Shown here: positions 56,679-64,000 of the stretch, one piece after another | Position numbering within the stretch: the stretch's first letter is position 1 | How the letters are laid out: the number at the start of each line of letters is the position of its first letter | NCBI GenBank assembly: GCA_030435675.1 | Contig: CM059624.1 | Coordinates: 2,256,769-2,320,768 of the forward strand | Direction of reading: 5' to 3' | Length of the DNA stretch: 64,000 bases | DNA from: Steinernema hermaphroditum | Lineage: Eukaryota > Nematoda > Chromadorea > Rhabditida > Steinernematidae | The notes under the pieces: generated by a model | Told to the model about the DNA's origin: nothing | What the model saw: the letters and a program-made list of their open reading frames with translations, nothing else | Database searches by the model: none | Made by a program: the position numbers and the translations under genes

Positions 56679-58945
56679 CGCGGATCGAATGGCTATTAAT
56701 GTGTGGATGTCAAGTATTTATGTCGCTGTATAAATGCGTCAACGATTGTGAGAGTTCTGAAAAACAAGAAACGCGCGATCATACACACATGTGCGGGATC
56801 TCTGTTAAATGTCATACGGTTAGTTTTACAATACAAATTTCTTTTCGTATACAATACGGTCCCCGTATACAATTGTATACGGAAAGAAACAGAAGAAACA
56901 AATGATAGTTGAAACTTTGTGAACTCAAGCCTTGCTTTGTGCAGACTTCACTTCCCCCTCAGCGTCTGGTATGTGCTTTCTGCATAAAGAATCAATTTTT
57001 TGTTTCCCATCGTCTGCTCCCCCGTCGCCGCTTCTTCCCCTTTACGAAACAGTGCTTGATTATGCAGTATTCGGCGCGACTGATGGCGTCGGAATGCACG
57101 ATTTCACGATTTTCACGATTTTACTTCATGAATCAAAGGCGTTACGCCTTGCATGACACCGATTAATAGACAACAGAGGATATCACTTGTAGACGGCTTC
57201 ATTCCTGGCGCGGCGTTGATGTCGAACCGGTGGGAGACGGCGCGCTTCACGGGGCATCTGGGAATCGGCGAAACTCCGGAAATGGCGCTCGAACTTCTTC
57301 TTCTCGGGGCGTTTGAGGAGGCTTCTGCGTCAGAGGAGGCTTCTGAGCTCGCATCTGCTACGGAGAGATGAGTCCGTGGTTCGGGGGTTGCGTCTTCCTC
57401 AGTATTGGTGTCCTCAGAGCGTCGGTGACCTTCGGGATGACATCTCACGCAGCGTCGGGCGTCGGATTTCTGGCGTCGGACATCTTGTTGTCTGCGGTGG
57501 TGGGACTACGGCTTCCGGGTGTCCCAATTCCCTCTGGAAGCCGGAACACTCACAACTGCCACAGGGTTTGCTGTCTGACCAACCCGACGCTCAGAGAGCG
57601 GCCGGAGGGACCGACCGCTCGCCACCGCGACACGAGTGAGACCCCCGGAATGCACTATTAGATGAAAATGATAACACAGAAACATCGACGCGGCTGCTAC
57701 GTCGACGCTAAGAGGCTAACCAGAGACAAACGAAAGAAACTTGCAAAACCATGCTGTTAAATCAGCCATAAATCACTATGAGAAAGCTGAAACTCTAAGC
57801 TGTCACGTCACACTGTTGATGAAAAGCAGACAAGGTGCTTGCTCTACATGCGATATCGTTGTAACGACTTGTCAACGACAGTCGTTTCTCTAGCATGGAA
57901 ATGCACTCTGTATGTGTAAATGGCTGCACGTTTGCAAAGGAATGTGTCGTCCGTTTTTATGTTTAAACATGTGTATAGCATACTCGTTGTTTGTAATAAA
58001 TAAGTTAGCACGGATGGCTCAGCGGCGGGTGGCAAGGCAAGGCAAGACTTCCTGGTGGATTGGCACTGTTACGTTATAGAAAAGGAGGAAGACTCTTATG
58101 GAATATGGATGCTAAGTGGTTTAAGGAAGCGCTGCAGTAATCTGTATTCCTTGGGACACTTTATTAGCATATTTTCATTGACATAGTAACACAGATCTTG
58201 CAAATTCACCATCGTATGTGTCTAAAGGTCCCCGATTTCATGACCGTGTTCTTTTTGTTGTGTAGGGCCAGCGTCGATCGGCGAGGAAGCTCTTCGGTTG
58301 GTATCAATCTGCCCTTTGAGGGCATCTCCAACGCCACACTGTCCCTCGTGTTGCGCCGCACCGTGTGTCGCCCGGCCCCTCTTCCTCGTGCTGTTGCGAG
58401 TAACCCCAGAAGAAGAAGATGGCACTTTCTTTGTTGTCGATCGGCTATGAACCCTTATGCGCATCGGGGGCTGTCTGTGAATCGATTGTCAGTTTGTCCC
58501 ACCTCATCCTTTGAGGAATGAACACCTCGACCTTGTACAACTTGTCGATATTGTTAGCGTTGATCGGTCACAAATCCTTCTGTGCATCGGATGATATCAT
58601 TCCGACCCTCTGATAACAAAACAAGCCCCGAGTTATATAGTCCCTCGCAACGTCCCCTATTTCACGACAGTGTTCCTCTTTGTTGTGAAGGGCCGTCGAT
58701 CGGCGAGGAAGCCTTTCGGCTGGTATCAGTTTGCCCTTTGAGGGCATCTCCGACGCAACACTATCCCTCCTGTTGCGCCGCGCCGTGCGTCGCCCGGCCC
58801 CTCTTCCTCGTACTGTCTGAAGGAGGCGCGAAGAAGGACGGTCTTTATTGGCAGTCGCGTCGCACTAGATGTTTACACATTTCTCCTTCATACGTCGTGT
58901 CGTGGCCGCTTTAAGCTTCCGATCCCAGACCTTTTCTCTTTCAGA
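56679..58945. repeat. Repeat-rich intergenic region
   Basis: 57180-57650 is a dispersed repeat matching 35780-36065 in its left part and 21993-22120 in its right part. 58255-58400 recurs at 58665-58815 as a direct repeat (shared GTCGATCGGCGAGGAAGC, CCCTTTGAGGGCATCTCC, GTCGCCCGGCCCCTCTTCC). GC content is high in both. No credible gene. Confidence 0.6.
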
Positions 58946-59850
58946 ATGAATCCTATAGTGAAACCGACGATTCACCTCATCTGGCTCTTCGGCTTGTTCA
59001 CTCTCGTTTCCTTCATCAGCGTAAGACATTATTTCCCAAATCACACCATGACCTCACCTTCAGATGCATATTCTGACAACCATGCAATGCAAAGATCAAC
59101 TCAATCATGACGTTACACCCGGGCCTGTCGTTCAAGCGAGGGTTAACGCGGTAAGAAGCTGAAATGTTGGATTCTTTCCTTTAAAAATCATGTGCGATTC
59201 TGTGTCAAGAGAGCATTTAGGAGTTCACCTGGTTTATCGCCGTTCTCACTGGCGTCTGCTTCGTTCCCCTTCTGCCCTGGATGTGTATTAGGAACGGAAA
59301 ATTCCATAGAGATATTGATCAAAATATTCGTGTCAAGTCAACTGTTATTTCAGGAGTATTTATCGTTCTGTGCGCTGTTCAGGTAAGCATAAAAATTCGT
59401 TCCTTTTTTTATTCCATTTCTTTATAGATCTTGATTCTGGGCTTGTTGTGCTATCCTGGATATACTAATCTCTTCTGGGGATACTACTACACCAAATCGT
59501 TCTTCTGCGATGTGGCCAAAGAGAACGTTCCCAAGATGCTCCCTGGCCGCTACACTTACGATTCCTATAACTGTCACATCCCCGCCCACGAATTCCACAA
59601 TTTCGTCTTCCTCATCGTCTACTGGTACCTTGTCGCCTCCATTTTCCACCAGTTGTTCAAGATGGCCGTCACCCTCCTTGCTATCTTCAATGTCTCAATC
59701 GGTTTCAGTTATCGCTCTCTTAACTTCTCCTTCGGCAACCCCAACCACGTCACCACTGAGCTTCCCACTATCTCAGCACATGTTGCTCATTCTGGAGAAG
59801 AAGAGACTTCTCCACAGAGCAACGAGCCTCATCTTCTGAAGGGCTTCTGA
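58946..59850 (+). CDS. Four-transmembrane protein, uncharacterised
   Basis: Exons 58946-59020, 59064-59150, 59221-59382, 59428-59850, all phase 0, 248 aa. ATG is one base after CTCTTTCAG, a likely trans-splice site. Helices: IHLIWLFGLFTLVSFIS; FTWFIAVLTGVCFVPLLPW; VISGVFIVLCAVQILILGLL; FLIVYWYLVASIFHQLF and a following hydrophobic run. A Cys-containing loop between helices 3 and 4 and a Ser/Glu-rich polar tail give a tetraspan layout; no CCG tetraspanin motif is present, so it is not a classical tetraspanin. Convergent with the next gene. Confidence 0.8.
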
Positions 59851-60074: not shown

Positions 60075-61597
60075 TTATTTTCGAATTGAGCTGTAGGCGA
60101 AGGAAGACGACGGTTTCTTCGGGATACCGCTACATGGCGCGATAGACTGCTGTGCCTTGGCAACCGTGGGCGCATCCTGCTGCGCCTTGGCAACCATCGG
60201 CGTATCCTGCTGCGCCTTGGCAACCATGGGTACATTCCTGGTAGAAGGTGAAGTAGCGTCCTTCGTACTTATCGTCAATCGGCTTTCGCTCTCACTTCTG
60301 TTCGATCTGCGGGAACGAGCGTTTCTGCGATTTCGGGAGCGTCGACGACGGCTTAGCTCCCTGTGATACCTCCTTCGCCACTTCTTCTCCTCCTCCGCGC
60401 GCTTCATATCATTCTTCCTCTGTACATCTGCAATTGATTTTGTTGCAAAATGAAACGAGAAAGAAACATACATTCGAGAAGGAAAACAACACTACAAGTA
60501 AAAACAACAAGTAGAACTCCGAAGATTAGGGCCACACCGGTAATCAAACAAACAATTTTGGAATAATCCACATTGATGAACTCTTTAGGGAGCATCAGCG
60601 ACGTGTCGGCCGGACTTTTTCCTCTGACGTCATCGGAAAGCAGAGATCCGGAAGGCTGACGAGTTGAATTGGATTTGGAAAACTGGTGAGTTACATTGAT
60701 GCCAGGTGTGTGAGAAGCGAGTGGATACAGTTCGGCATCGATGTGGTTTTTCGAGTTTTTGTACATTTTCCGTGCAGCCTGATCGGCCAAACAGAAGATA
60801 TGCATCATCTTCTGCCTAACTTCAGCTGCTTTACCGAACGCTTGTGCTGAAATAACTCTATCCTGGTAAAAACGACAGAAGAGTCTATCAACAAACCGAT
60901 ATCTTCACGCCTTTCTCGGTAGAAATTACATCGAACATCGCTGGATTGGAACACTTCTCTTTCCAGGAAATCAAGATAACCACGATCATTGAATGGTCCA
61001 ACGAGGTAATAGAGCGGGTACTCCTTTGGCCAACGGAACGAGTCCAGTTCGTCAACCCTATTACGGACACATTCCCTGATTCTTCGTTTATATTGCTGCT
61101 GCTGAAGAGTCGTGTGGTGGTCTGAAATATCAAACAAAACACACCTACAGAAAAAAACAGTGTCACCTACTATAACTTATGTAAGGGCGTGCGAAGAAAT
61201 AGAAGGCGCACTGAATTTGAAGAGGCGCGCCCGAAACTGCCTTAAATCCCTCGTTGAAGCCGTCGTATGTCTTCAAATCTTGCTCGATCAGCTGTCTCGG
61301 TATATATGAGAACCTGTGCATCTCTGAAACGAAATTTACGATGAATCGAACGATGTACTGCCACTAACCATGCTCTCGAGACTCGAAATTGTGCAAAACC
61401 CATTCTTTCCATCCGCCAATCTGTTTATTCGCGTCGAGTACCGAACTTTCGAGAGCGGTAACAAGATTCAGCAGTTGTAAACTTCCCGCTTTGTCAATCT
61501 GGAACAGAAAAAGCAGTGATCAAAAGAAAACAGGTCAACTCACAGCACACACTTGTGCGAACAGCAAAACCACCAGAAAAGCTGCTGTGTGGATCAT
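60075..61597 (-). CDS. Single-pass membrane protein with Arg/Ser-rich repeat tail
   Basis: Exons 61597-61544, 61498-61369, 61323-61171, 61121-60897, 60846-60472, 60427-60075, phase-consistent, 429 aa. Signal peptide MIHTAAFLVVLLFAQVCA, ectodomain with helical charged sequence, membrane helix VCLITGVALIFGVLLVVF, then a cytoplasmic tail rich in Arg/Ser (RRRRSRNRRNARSRRSNRS) and three near-identical ten-residue repeats (MVAKAQQDTP type). Family unknown. The short intron before the tail (GTATG...TTGCAG) decides the frame: read through, the protein ends earlier as QMYRGRMI. Confidence 0.8.
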
Positions 61598-61887
61598 AGC
61601 CAACCGTCCGCCACTTTTCGAGCTTCAAATGAACCGCCTTCGGGTCCAAGCACCATTTGCAAAAAATAGACGTCTAGACACATCTTGTCTGCATTTCACG
61701 TTTCCAGCTCATCCGCAAGCCTAGACACGAAATTTGAATCACAAAATCGATCAAGATATAACATGTCCTGACCGAACAGTCACTAATGCTGACTCCGAAC
61801 GAATACCAGGTTTATTGGTGACAAAATGGATAGCATGAAAGACGACGATGGCATATATTTGCACGAATGGGAGAGGATAAGAGATAA

Positions 61888-62490
61888 TCAATCTGTACCA
61901 GCGTCTTGAACCTTCGCCGTAGCACATTGGCCAGCAGTGTTGGTCGCTTTGTCTTCATCTGGATAAATATTTTCGTCAGTCGTACTGGATTCTTGGATTT
62001 TCGTATTGTCGCTTTGAACCTTCATAGCGTTGGCGTGCCTGTTCACTCTCCGCTTTCGGTGGAACCAGTTCAAGACTTGGGTCTGCGCCAGTCCAGTTTC
62101 AGATGCAAGGTAATCTTTCGTCTCTTGTGTCAGGTAAGCTGACTGTTCAAAGTGTTCTTCCAGGATCTTCCTCTGCTCGTCCGTGAAAATGATCTTCGGC
62201 TTCTTCTCGCCTTCGCCGTCCGATGTTCTGTCGGAGCTCTTCGACTGCTTCGCGCCCTTCGCATACTCGACCTCTTCTTGGAGACGGCGTTTGGCGACAC
62301 GTTGCGCTTCTTCGGGTAATCCCAGTGCCAGCAAAAGGCGCTCTTCCAGGAGACCGTAGACGTTGATGACGAGCGGCTTGCCGCAGGGTTTCCACGTGTG
62401 TGCGGATTCGGCGATCAAACGATCCAGTAGCGAAGGCGTCTCCGGACCTGTGTCGTCGGTGCATCCCGACGAGCTGGATGGAGAAGTCAT
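61888..62490 (-). CDS. Divergent homeobox protein with Arg at position 51
   Basis: Intronless 200-aa ORF from an ATG 26 bases inside an exon whose acceptor (CATTTCAG) is at 62517. The homeodomain is residues ~95-154, with Leu16, Phe20, Trp48, Phe49 and Arg53 in place. Helix 3 reads QTQVLNWFHRKRR: position 50 is His, as in Cut-class proteins, but position 51, almost always Asn, is Arg. A Leu-rich helical segment (residues 38-70) and basic/acidic linker precede it; no Cut, POU or LIM domain is seen. Presumably nuclear; DNA-binding mode uncertain. AATAAA on the minus strand near 61810. Confidence 0.85.
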   Translation of the reverse strand: MTSPSSSSGCTDDTGPETPSLLDRLIAESAHTWKPCGKPLVINVYGLLEERLLLALGLPEEAQRVAKRRLQEEVEYAKGAKQSKSSDRTSDGEGEKKPKIIFTDEQRKILEEHFEQSAYLTQETKDYLASETGLAQTQVLNWFHRKRRVNRHANAMKVQSDNTKIQESSTTDENIYPDEDKATNTAGQCATAKVQDAGTD

Positions 62491-62971
62491 CTGGCGACGC
62501 TTCTTTGGGGTGATCTCTGAAATGGCGTCAAATTTAATGAAGAATAAAGCGGGGGTAGAGCACTTAACAGCGAGCACGAGAATCCGCTGTTCGTGTCCCG
62601 CGTTGCGTTTGTTGGAATGTTATGGATTGGGTCCCACAGAGAAGGCCTTGGACTTGTCGTTCGACATCACTCGCTCGTCATTTGGGGATGGGGGTGGACC
62701 TGACCGGTGCTGCTTGATTTGCCGGGTGCACCTTCTCGATGCGGGCTTTTGGGTATGTTCATTTCGTAAAAAGGGGCTCATATTTTTGGAACGGCGGTTC
62801 TGTGTCCGTGCAATGACGACTAATGGTCCATGTTGAAGAAATTTCTGCAAAGCACCTTTTGTGTTTTCTCTCTACGTCGCTTTTGATCGCGTTTGTTGTA
62901 CGTTTCGTGGACACTGCCGTGTAGAACTCTTCGAACTATCCTATCTGTTTAGCTCTCTGCACAAGAGGAAG

Positions 62972-64000
62972 ATGAGTGCCCAAGGCACTTTGATTAAGGA
63001 AGAGCCGGTTGGCGTGGTGAAGTTGGAAGCGATTGACATGGAATTCGAGGAAAATGCCCGAGGTTCGCCTTTGCTGGGTGAAGGAAGTCAGTTCGTTGGC
63101 AATACACTGCAAACGCAGGATGACCTTCCTACCCAACGGCTGATCGACACCCAGGTTGCTGATGCTAACGTAAGTATTGGCTTGTCCAGGTATTGGCAGT
63201 TTTGTCTGGCTGTTGATTCCATGCAATTCTTTAGTCCTGTAGATTCTAACAACAGAATGACCGAAAGTACTTTGGTAAAAGAAGAGCCAGTCGAAATGGA
63301 AGTGGGGCGACCAGATCCTCCCTGTCCGCCTCAAGAGACTCAGTTGGTTTCTGCAGCGGTTCATATGACTGTGAACCGTGTGAAGGAAGAGCCAGTTGAC
63401 GCGGAATCCGAGGAACGACGAACTCCTTCTTCATCTAACGAACGCCGAGAAGATACTGAAGAAGTGCGCAATTATGTGGAAAACGACACATTGGCAGAAA
63501 GCATATTGGTGAAGTTAGAAGCGGTTGACATGGAACTCGAGGACCATAGTCAAAGATCGTCTTTTCTGAATGAAGAAAATCTGTTCCTTGACAATCTGCT
63601 GCAAATGGAAGATAGCTTTCTTACTCAACAGCTGATGAACACCCAGGTTGCTGATGCTAACATAAGTATTGGCTTGTCCAGGTATTGCTAGTTTTATCGT
63701 GGTCTTGATTGTATGTACTTGACTCTTCAGTCCTACGCATTCGAACAACAGAATGACCGAAAGTACTTTGGTGAAGGACGAACCAGTTGAAACGGAAGCA
63801 GAAGAAGTTGCTGGGTTGTCCGAAGAGTATCACGGAGCCATCGAAGACTCTGGTTCTACAACGGAACAAGTACTCGATCTGGTGAAGGACGAGCCGGTCG
63901 AAATGGAACTTGGACAGCCTGATGACCCTTTGCCATCAGAAGAACTCACCCAACAGATCGACAAACAGCTCACTGTTGGCTTCTCGCCAAGTCTTTCTCC
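62972..64000 (+). CDS. Tandem-exon protein with an array of SUMO-acceptor (psi-K-x-E) motifs, partial
   Basis: Exons 62972-63189, 63235-63681 and 63731 to beyond the window, joined in phase 2 through identical donors (TTGTCCAG|GTATTG). Within 310 codons there are seven short blocks of the type (I/V)-K-(E/D/L)-E-(P/A)-(V/I): LIKEEPVG, VVKLEAIDME, LVKEEPVEME, RVKEEPVDAE, LVKLEAVDME, LVKDEPVETE, LVKDEPVEME. Each fits the SUMO consensus. Between them are acidic, Gln/Leu-rich stretches; QVADAN(V/I)SIGLS closes exons 1 and 2. No folded domain recognised. ATG 62972 was chosen because a CTGTTTAG acceptor lies 20 bases upstream. Nuclear transcription-related role is a guess. Confidence 0.75.

What the first reader, a model, noticed from the sequence alone, without database searches (positions are those of the whole stretch)
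62972..64000. Array of at least seven SUMO-consensus motifs built from repeated exons
Seen: seven psi-K-x-E blocks in one reading frame, five of them followed by Pro-Val, in exon modules that are clearly duplicates, with the lysine conserved through divergence of the sequence around it. Known: psi-K-x-E is the SUMO attachment consensus, and K-x-E-P forms occur in transcription regulators. Inferred: the gene may encode a multi-SUMO scaffold. I know no nematode protein described this way.
Basis: partly seen in the sequence, partly recalled or inferred. Interest (0 to 1): 0.85.

Follow-up and report, generated by a model that had tools for sequence, protein, structure and literature searches.

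The report
Worm gene with seven SUMO sites
An insect-parasitic nematode carries a duplicated gene whose protein has a long acidic tail with almost no lysines except seven placed in the sequence that the SUMO tagging enzyme recognises, so it may be a ready-made landing strip for several SUMO tags, which remains to be tested.

Summary
Exons 1-3 of a seven-exon gene (window 62972 onward) encode seven psi-K-x-E blocks in one spliced frame, five followed by Pro-Val. The gene runs 917 bases past the window and encodes 554 aa; database protein P0001 matches it residue for residue, with 11 extra residues in front. The genome is taken as Steinernema hermaphroditum. Against: the motifs descend from one another by duplication, psi/K/E sites change as often as the rest between copies, and N-region omega 0.79 is not different from neutral. 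Best reading: a nuclear multi-SUMO acceptor platform resembling ETV4's. Sumoylation is untested. The C-terminal part matched no known family.

The parts
62739..62752 (+). possible upstream coding exon (MRAFG), used only in database protein P0001; doubtful, because the paralogue has one base fewer just before the ATG and would be out of frame
   Evidence: P0001 begins MRAFGSLHKRK before the model's first Met; joining 62739-62752 to 62953 onward gives that sequence
62972..63189 (+). exon 1 (coding part), psi-K-x-E sites 1 and 2, first module
   Evidence: gene model equal to P0001 residues 12-565; upstream acceptor TTTAG ends at 62952
62993..63004 (+). site 1 IKEE(PV), K9
63017..63028 (+). site 2 VKLE(AI), K17
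63190..63234 (+). intron 1, 45 nt, GT..AG
63235..63681 (+). exon 2, sites 3, 4 and 5
63275..63286 (+). site 3 VKEE(PV), K88
63380..63391 (+). site 4 VKEE(PV), K123; VKEQ in the paralogue
63509..63520 (+). site 5 VKLE(AV), K166
63682..63730 (+). intron 2, 49 nt, GT..AG
63731..64000 (+). exon 3, sites 6 and 7; continues to C4:2320942 (L004:2174) outside the window; exons 4-7 follow to C4:2321685
63771..63782 (+). site 6 VKDE(PV), K237
63882..63893 (+). site 7 VKDE(PV), K274
63015..63302 (+). first copy of the internal tandem duplication, spanning exon 1, intron 1 and exon 2
   Evidence: 79% identical to 63507-63798
63507..63798 (+). second copy of the internal tandem duplication, spanning exon 2, intron 2 and exon 3
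61888..62619 (-). open frame with the homeodomain (62047-62205) of the divergently transcribed homeobox gene that was duplicated together with the SUMO-site gene
   Evidence: Pfam PF00046, 1.2e-12; co-duplicated segment starts at 61787; paralogue P0002

Best explanation
This is, by its structure, an intact protein-coding nematode gene with two paralogues in one genome, taken as Steinernema hermaphroditum. Its product has an acidic, lysine-poor N-terminal tail of about 370 aa that was lengthened by duplication of exon-intron-exon units, a C-terminal part of about 184 aa of unknown family, and a basic QRKRKW end that looks like a nuclear localisation signal. Most likely mechanism: in the nucleus Ubc9 recognises the seven psi-K-x-E blocks and attaches several SUMO molecules along one flexible tail. 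This makes a multivalent SUMO platform that recruits multi-SIM partners (corepressors, chromatin factors or a SUMO-targeted ubiquitin ligase), while the C-terminal part places it on a target. With almost no other lysines, the tail offers few sites to ubiquitin or acetyl. Shown: gene structure, motif array, lysine distribution, paralogue, presence of SUMO genes. Inferred: expression, nuclear location, disorder, sumoylation, multivalent recruitment, repression.
For: Seven motifs in one spliced frame, model identical to P0001 residues 12-565. 7 of 8 lysines of the N region lie in psi-K-x-E; 0 of 20,000 shuffles reach this. Outside the seven site positions K 1 against R 16 (copy A) and 1 against 18 (copy B), so the lack is of lysine and not of positive charge as such. 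Between paralogues 0 of 48 N-region differences involve lysine, 4.28 expected, P = 0.011; in the C region 1 of 14, 1.27 expected. Motif columns over 14 copies: K 14, E 13, psi always V, I or M, while the x position is free (E 8, L 4, D 2). Same-strand clusters of [VIM]KxEPV within 1 kb: only these two genes. Exonic indels between copies are 3 and 27 nt, whereas the three unequal intron pairs differ by 4, 2 and 7 nt; C-region omega 0.33, P = 0.005. Two SUMO genes and four SP-RING (zf-MIZ) matches in the genome.
Against: No sumoylation, expression or localisation data. The motifs are duplicates, so their number is not seven independent origins. Psi/K/E codons changed as often as the rest between paralogues (3 of 21 against 48 of 370), and N-region omega 0.79 is not distinguishable from neutral (P = 0.38). 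Copy B has lost one motif (VKEQ). No orthologue was found to test long-term retention. If P0001's 11 extra N-terminal residues are real, they add two non-motif lysines. The structure model is too poor to say whether the tail is disordered (mean pLDDT 33).
Confidence: 0.55

Rival explanations
1. The repeat is an acidic short linear motif (V-K-x-E-P-V-E) amplified by tandem duplication. The match to the SUMO consensus is inherited from one ancestral peptide, and the array is evolving almost neutrally or serves another binding partner.
For: Motifs are embedded in duplicated DNA. N-region omega 0.79 (P = 0.38), spacers 0.92; psi/K/E no more constrained than the rest between copies. The +4 V (12 of 14) and +7 E (12 of 14) are kept nearly as well as the Glu of psi-K-x-E (13 of 14), so the kept unit is longer than the SUMO consensus.
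Against: K is invariant in 14 of 14 copies while x varies E/L/D; the +3 residue varies (P 9, A 4, L 1). Lysine avoidance outside the motifs is not explained by drift of duplicated peptides.
Confidence: 0.3
2. The tail is a transcriptional regulator's negative domain working through individual synergy-control-type SUMO sites (as in Nurr1), with no multivalent platform function.
For: Five of seven sites have a Pro or Gly within K+3 to K+6. Synergy control motifs are SUMO consensus flanked by Pro or Gly (passages of PMC3554661). In C. elegans NHR-25 the sumoylation-defective mutant activates a reporter more strongly (passages of PMC3861103).
Against: Sites 2 and 5 lack a downstream Pro/Gly, and only site 1 has a Pro or Gly on both sides. 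No DNA-binding domain was recognised in the C region.
Confidence: 0.1
3. The open frames are pseudogenic or a wrong gene prediction.
For: No transcript data were available. Paralogue B did not appear as a predicted protein in the protein search.
Against: Both copies keep seven exons, GT..AG introns of 45-52 nt and a full frame of 554 and 564 aa. P0001 is an independent prediction with the same 554 residues. C-region omega 0.33.
Confidence: 0.05

Closest known systems
ETV4 (PEA3) multi-sumoylated N-terminal region, read by RNF4 (PMC5445624; abstract and 12 of 23 found passages seen)
   Same: Five psi-K-x-E sites; sumoylation sites spread over 330 aa of the N-terminal region; a multi-SUMO platform for a multi-SIM protein
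   Different: No known domain found here (an ETS domain in ETV4 is recalled); seven sites made by duplication of exon units; almost all other lysines missing; no sumoylation data
C. elegans NHR-25 (PMC3861103, passages seen)
   Same: Nematode nuclear protein with three psi-K-x-E sites, sumoylated on three lysines in vitro; [quoted passage not shown]
   Different: A nuclear receptor with three hinge sites, not a seven-site array; its lysine content was not looked at here
Synergy control motif of transcription factors such as Nurr1 (PMC3554661, abstract and passages seen)
   Same: SUMO consensus with Pro or Gly nearby; 5 of 7 sites here have it downstream
   Different: Usually one or a few sites per factor (recalled); two-sided Pro/Gly only at site 1 here
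Lysine deserts of ubiquitin-system proteins (PMC10169902, abstract and 12 of 23 found passages seen)
   Same: Long stretch poor in lysine but not in arginine
   Different: Those deserts are devoid of lysine and guard against ubiquitin; here seven of the eight lysines left are SUMO-type

Membership tests
multi-SUMO platform (ETV4-like) | several psi-K-x-E sites in one protein region | tested here: met
   7 in copy A, 6 in copy B
multi-SUMO platform (ETV4-like) | region without ordered domains | tested here: inconclusive
   No Pfam match for residues 1-311, no NCBIfam match for residues 1-370, net charge -54 over 370 aa; the fold model was made without an alignment and has mean pLDDT 33
multi-SUMO platform (ETV4-like) | lysines are conjugated to SUMO | not testable with these tools
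   needs an in vitro or in vivo sumoylation assay
multi-SUMO platform (ETV4-like) | multi-SIM partner binds the multi-SUMO form | not testable with these tools
   binding assay needed
multi-SUMO platform (ETV4-like) | SUMO and SP-RING ligase genes exist in the organism | tested here: met
   two SUMO genes (Rad60-SLD; L022 also against PDB), four zf-MIZ matches over the cut-off; Ubc9 and E1 were not searched
synergy control motif | psi-K-x-E flanked by Pro or Gly | tested here: inconclusive
   downstream Pro/Gly in 5 of 7; on both sides only at site 1 of copy A
negatively charged SUMO motif (NDSM; name from passages of PMC3395311) | acidic cluster after psi-K-x-E | tested here: inconclusive
   4 acidic residues at K+3 to K+10 in 4 of 7 sites, 1-2 in the other 3; region mean 1.7 per 8 residues
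lysine desert | lysine depleted while arginine is kept | tested here: met
   outside the seven site positions K 1 against R 16 (A) and 1 against 18 (B); 0 of 48 differences involve K; the tail is not wholly lysine-free
known DNA-binding or chromatin family (C region) | sequence match of the 184-aa C region | tested here: not met
   copy A 0 Pfam families up to E = 10; copy B only DUF365 at E = 0.071, below its cut-off; NCBIfam none (copy A); PDB best E = 1.4 (copy A). Fold comparison was not possible

The most novel reading that the evidence does not exclude
A dedicated multi-SUMO scaffold: selection expanded SUMO acceptor sites by duplication of exon units and purged nearly all other lysines from the tail, so that multivalent SUMO signals can be built on one protein in a nematode whose two SUMO proteins found here carry no lysine in their N-terminal tails and no psi-K-x-[DE], and so may form chains poorly, as reported for C. 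elegans SMO-1 (PMC3861103).
Probability: 0.2. Interest if true: 0.7.

Novelty: new variant of a known kind. Interest (0 to 1): 0.5.

Why it matters
The multi-SUMO platforms that I could compare with sit in well-known transcription factors. A protein tail whose lysines are almost all SUMO-type, extended by module duplication and largely kept in a paralogue, would be a natural tool to ask whether animals build multivalent SUMO signals on an array instead of by chains, in a hermaphroditic nematode for which genetic tools are reported (abstract of PMC10858997, search listing). It would also define an orphan protein family that was duplicated together with a homeobox gene.

Tried and rejected
Protein searches of the N part (3085 candidates, none at E <= 10) and of the C part (only the gene itself, P0001, among 497 candidates) found no relatives. 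The query was 311 aa, so by that tool's length rule proteins over about 544 aa, P0001 itself among them, could not appear; one search has no such gap for full-length relatives. As a check on that database, the neighbouring homeobox protein returned only its S. hermaphroditum paralogue among 809 candidates, so coverage of nematodes or the shared-word filter may be limiting; absence of orthologues is not shown. PDB, Pfam and NCBIfam gave nothing above cut-off for either part. Two weak leads for the C region (DUF365 at E = 0.071, ribosomal protein uS3 at E = 1.4) were set aside as chance.

Structure prediction of P0001 without an alignment gave mean pLDDT 33. No fold search was made on it, because a low-confidence model gives meaningless matches.

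Two further exact VKDEPVE DNA matches on C3 were considered as a third locus. The one that I could read, L013, lies in an Arg-Ser-rich frame (ATRVKDEPVEVKEEPL) with no resemblance to this gene outside the motif by eye; the script failed to find the match in L014 and I did not pursue it.

The idea that the motifs are under stronger purifying selection than spacers was tested between the paralogues and not supported. A bias from acidic composition was tested by shuffles and by the K/R comparison and does not explain the lysine pattern. The binomial and shuffle figures ignore that the motifs are duplicates and overstate significance.

The upstream exon in P0001 was tested against copy B: the stretch before the ATG is one base shorter there, so the extension would not be in frame, and I keep the ATG at 62972.

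Paper searches. None of the titles and abstract beginnings listed describes this gene or a Steinernema SUMO scaffold; the eight papers holding 'Steinernema' and 'SUMO' were seen as listing only. The library lacks most subscription journals and preprints.

Full report
Observation. Window 62972-64000 encodes the first three exons of a gene (the third runs on). With introns 63190-63234 (45 nt) and 63682-63730 (49 nt) removed, one frame of 311 aa holds seven [VI]-K-x-E blocks, at residues K9, K17, K88, K123, K166, K237 and K274. Five are followed by Pro-Val and two (K17, K166) by Ala-Ile or Ala-Val. The tandem duplication is also real: 63015-63302 and 63507-63798 are 79% identical over an exon-intron-exon unit.

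Extension. The window lies at C4:2256769-2320768 of a 90.6-Mb genome in 60 contigs. The neighbouring homeobox gene's paralogue is a database protein named from Steinernema hermaphroditum, on a contig of the same length as C4 (16,891,469 bases), so I take that as the species. Reading on gives seven exons and 554 aa, all six introns GT..AG and 45-49 nt. A predicted protein in the database, P0001 of 565 aa, equals this model residue for residue after 11 extra N-terminal residues from a possible upstream exon. That extension holds two lysines and would be out of frame in the paralogue, so I keep the later start. Past 64000 there are no more motifs: the whole protein has seven psi-K-x-E and the C-terminal 184 aa have 8 lysines, none in psi-K-x-[ED]. 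The protein ends QRKRKWPPSSNH, which looks like a nuclear localisation signal (motif recalled).

Paralogue. A second copy lies 4.5 Mb away on C4 with seven exons and 564 aa and 88.8% amino-acid identity. The duplicated block is 3.2 kb at 84% DNA identity, from window 61787 to 984 bases beyond the window's end, and contains the divergent homeobox gene as well. Only these two loci were found with the N part and the C part; that search scores only its best candidates.

Lysine pattern. The first 370 aa of copy A hold 8 lysines, 7 in psi-K-x-E; the matching 380 aa of copy B hold 8, 6 in psi-K-x-E, one in a broken site (VKEQ) and one elsewhere. No composition-preserving shuffle of 20,000 reached the observed count in either copy (maximum 4). 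Duplicated motifs are not independent, so I rest more on the second point: outside the seven site positions there is 1 lysine against 16 arginines in A and 1 against 18 in B (P = 1.4e-4 and 3.8e-5 if K and R were equally likely; the two copies are not independent). Between the copies, 0 of 48 amino-acid differences in the N region gain or lose a lysine where 4.28 are expected from the codons and the transition rate (P = 0.011); in the C region it is 1 of 14 with 1.27 expected. This resembles a lysine desert in the sense of PMC10169902 (passages), which argues that deserts not depleted in arginine are unlikely to be explained by net charge.

Genome control. The DNA pattern for [VIM]-K-x-E-P-V occurs 97 times in the genome, against 101 for the reversed pattern, so single matches are at chance level. 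Same-strand matches within 1 kb of each other occur only in this gene (5 in 906 bases) and its paralogue (2). A narrower pattern (VK[ED]EPV[ED]) gave 8 matches, 6 of them in the two genes and 2 on C3, with 2 for its reversed control; one of the C3 pair, in L013, lies in an unrelated Arg-Ser-rich frame, and the other was not read.

Selection. Omega is 0.60 over the whole protein (P = 0.025), 0.33 in the C region (P = 0.005) and 0.79 in the N region (P = 0.38) (counts rounded for the Fisher tests). The psi, K and E codons changed amino acid at 3 of 21 places (I to V, V to M, E to Q), so they are not measurably more constrained than the rest between these two close copies. Over all 14 motif copies the K column is invariant and E is kept in 13, while the x column is free (E 8, L 4, D 2); V at +4 and E at +7 are each kept in 12 of 14. 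Between the two internal modules of copy A, psi/K/E agree at 6 of 6 places counted and other residues at 45 of 75. Indels speak for coding: exonic differences between the copies are 3 and 27 nt, whereas three intron pairs differ by 4, 2 and 7 nt.

Machinery. The genome holds two SUMO genes, C5:4119626 and C1:8997407, that match Pfam Rad60-SLD and end in GG plus one or two residues; the second was also compared with solved structures and matches SUMO chains. It also has four zf-MIZ matches over the cut-off. Neither SUMO has a lysine in its N-terminal tail or a psi-K-x-[DE] site. C. elegans SMO-1 is reported not to form chains readily (PMC3861103, passages). An acceptor array would be another way to make a multivalent SUMO signal; this link is inference.

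Comparison. The nearest described case that I found is ETV4: five psi-K-x-E sites, sumoylation sites spread over 330 aa of its N-terminal region, and a multi-sumoylated form that binds RNF4 through several SIMs (PMC5445624, abstract and passages; one passage, cut at its start, I read as saying that the region lacks recognisable ordered domains). The present protein would work like it, but no domain of any known family was found in it. Five of seven sites also carry a downstream Pro or Gly as in synergy control motifs (PMC3554661, passages), but only site 1 has one on both sides.

Verdict. The array is real, unusual in its genome and sits on a tail from which other lysines are nearly absent. 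That it is a multi-SUMO platform is the most likely reading (0.55), not a shown one. The chief rival is an acidic peptide multiplied by duplication under weak selection (0.3). Sumoylation assays and orthologues from other Steinernema would decide.

Noticed in passing
G000 C5:4119626-4119835 (L021) and C1:8997407-8997616 (L022): Two SUMO genes in this nematode, with tails free of lysine and no psi-K-x-[DE] site.
   Followed up: partly
61787-64000 and C4:6787053-6790324: A 3.2-kb block with a divergent pair, homeobox gene and SUMO-site gene, was duplicated as a unit 4.5 Mb away at 84% identity.
   Followed up: partly
62047-62205 (-): Divergent homeodomain, nearest solved structures engrailed and CDX; its protein matched no other Pfam family except an overlapping Homeobox_KN hit.
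   Followed up: partly
60147-60236: Three 30-bp tandem repeats coding VAKAQQD-type decapeptides in a minus-strand frame.
   Followed up: no
56932-57975, 58225-58816 and 59399-59680: Stretches upstream of the gene recur within 10 kb downstream of it (L004) at 86-95% identity, partly inverted, so the locus sits among local duplications.
   Followed up: no
L013, around 1501 (C3:3309541): An Arg-Ser-rich frame ends in ATRVKDEPVEVKEEPLSSE and a short tail, two close SUMO-type sites in an unrelated protein; an identical 20-mer lies 69 kb away on the other strand.
   Followed up: no
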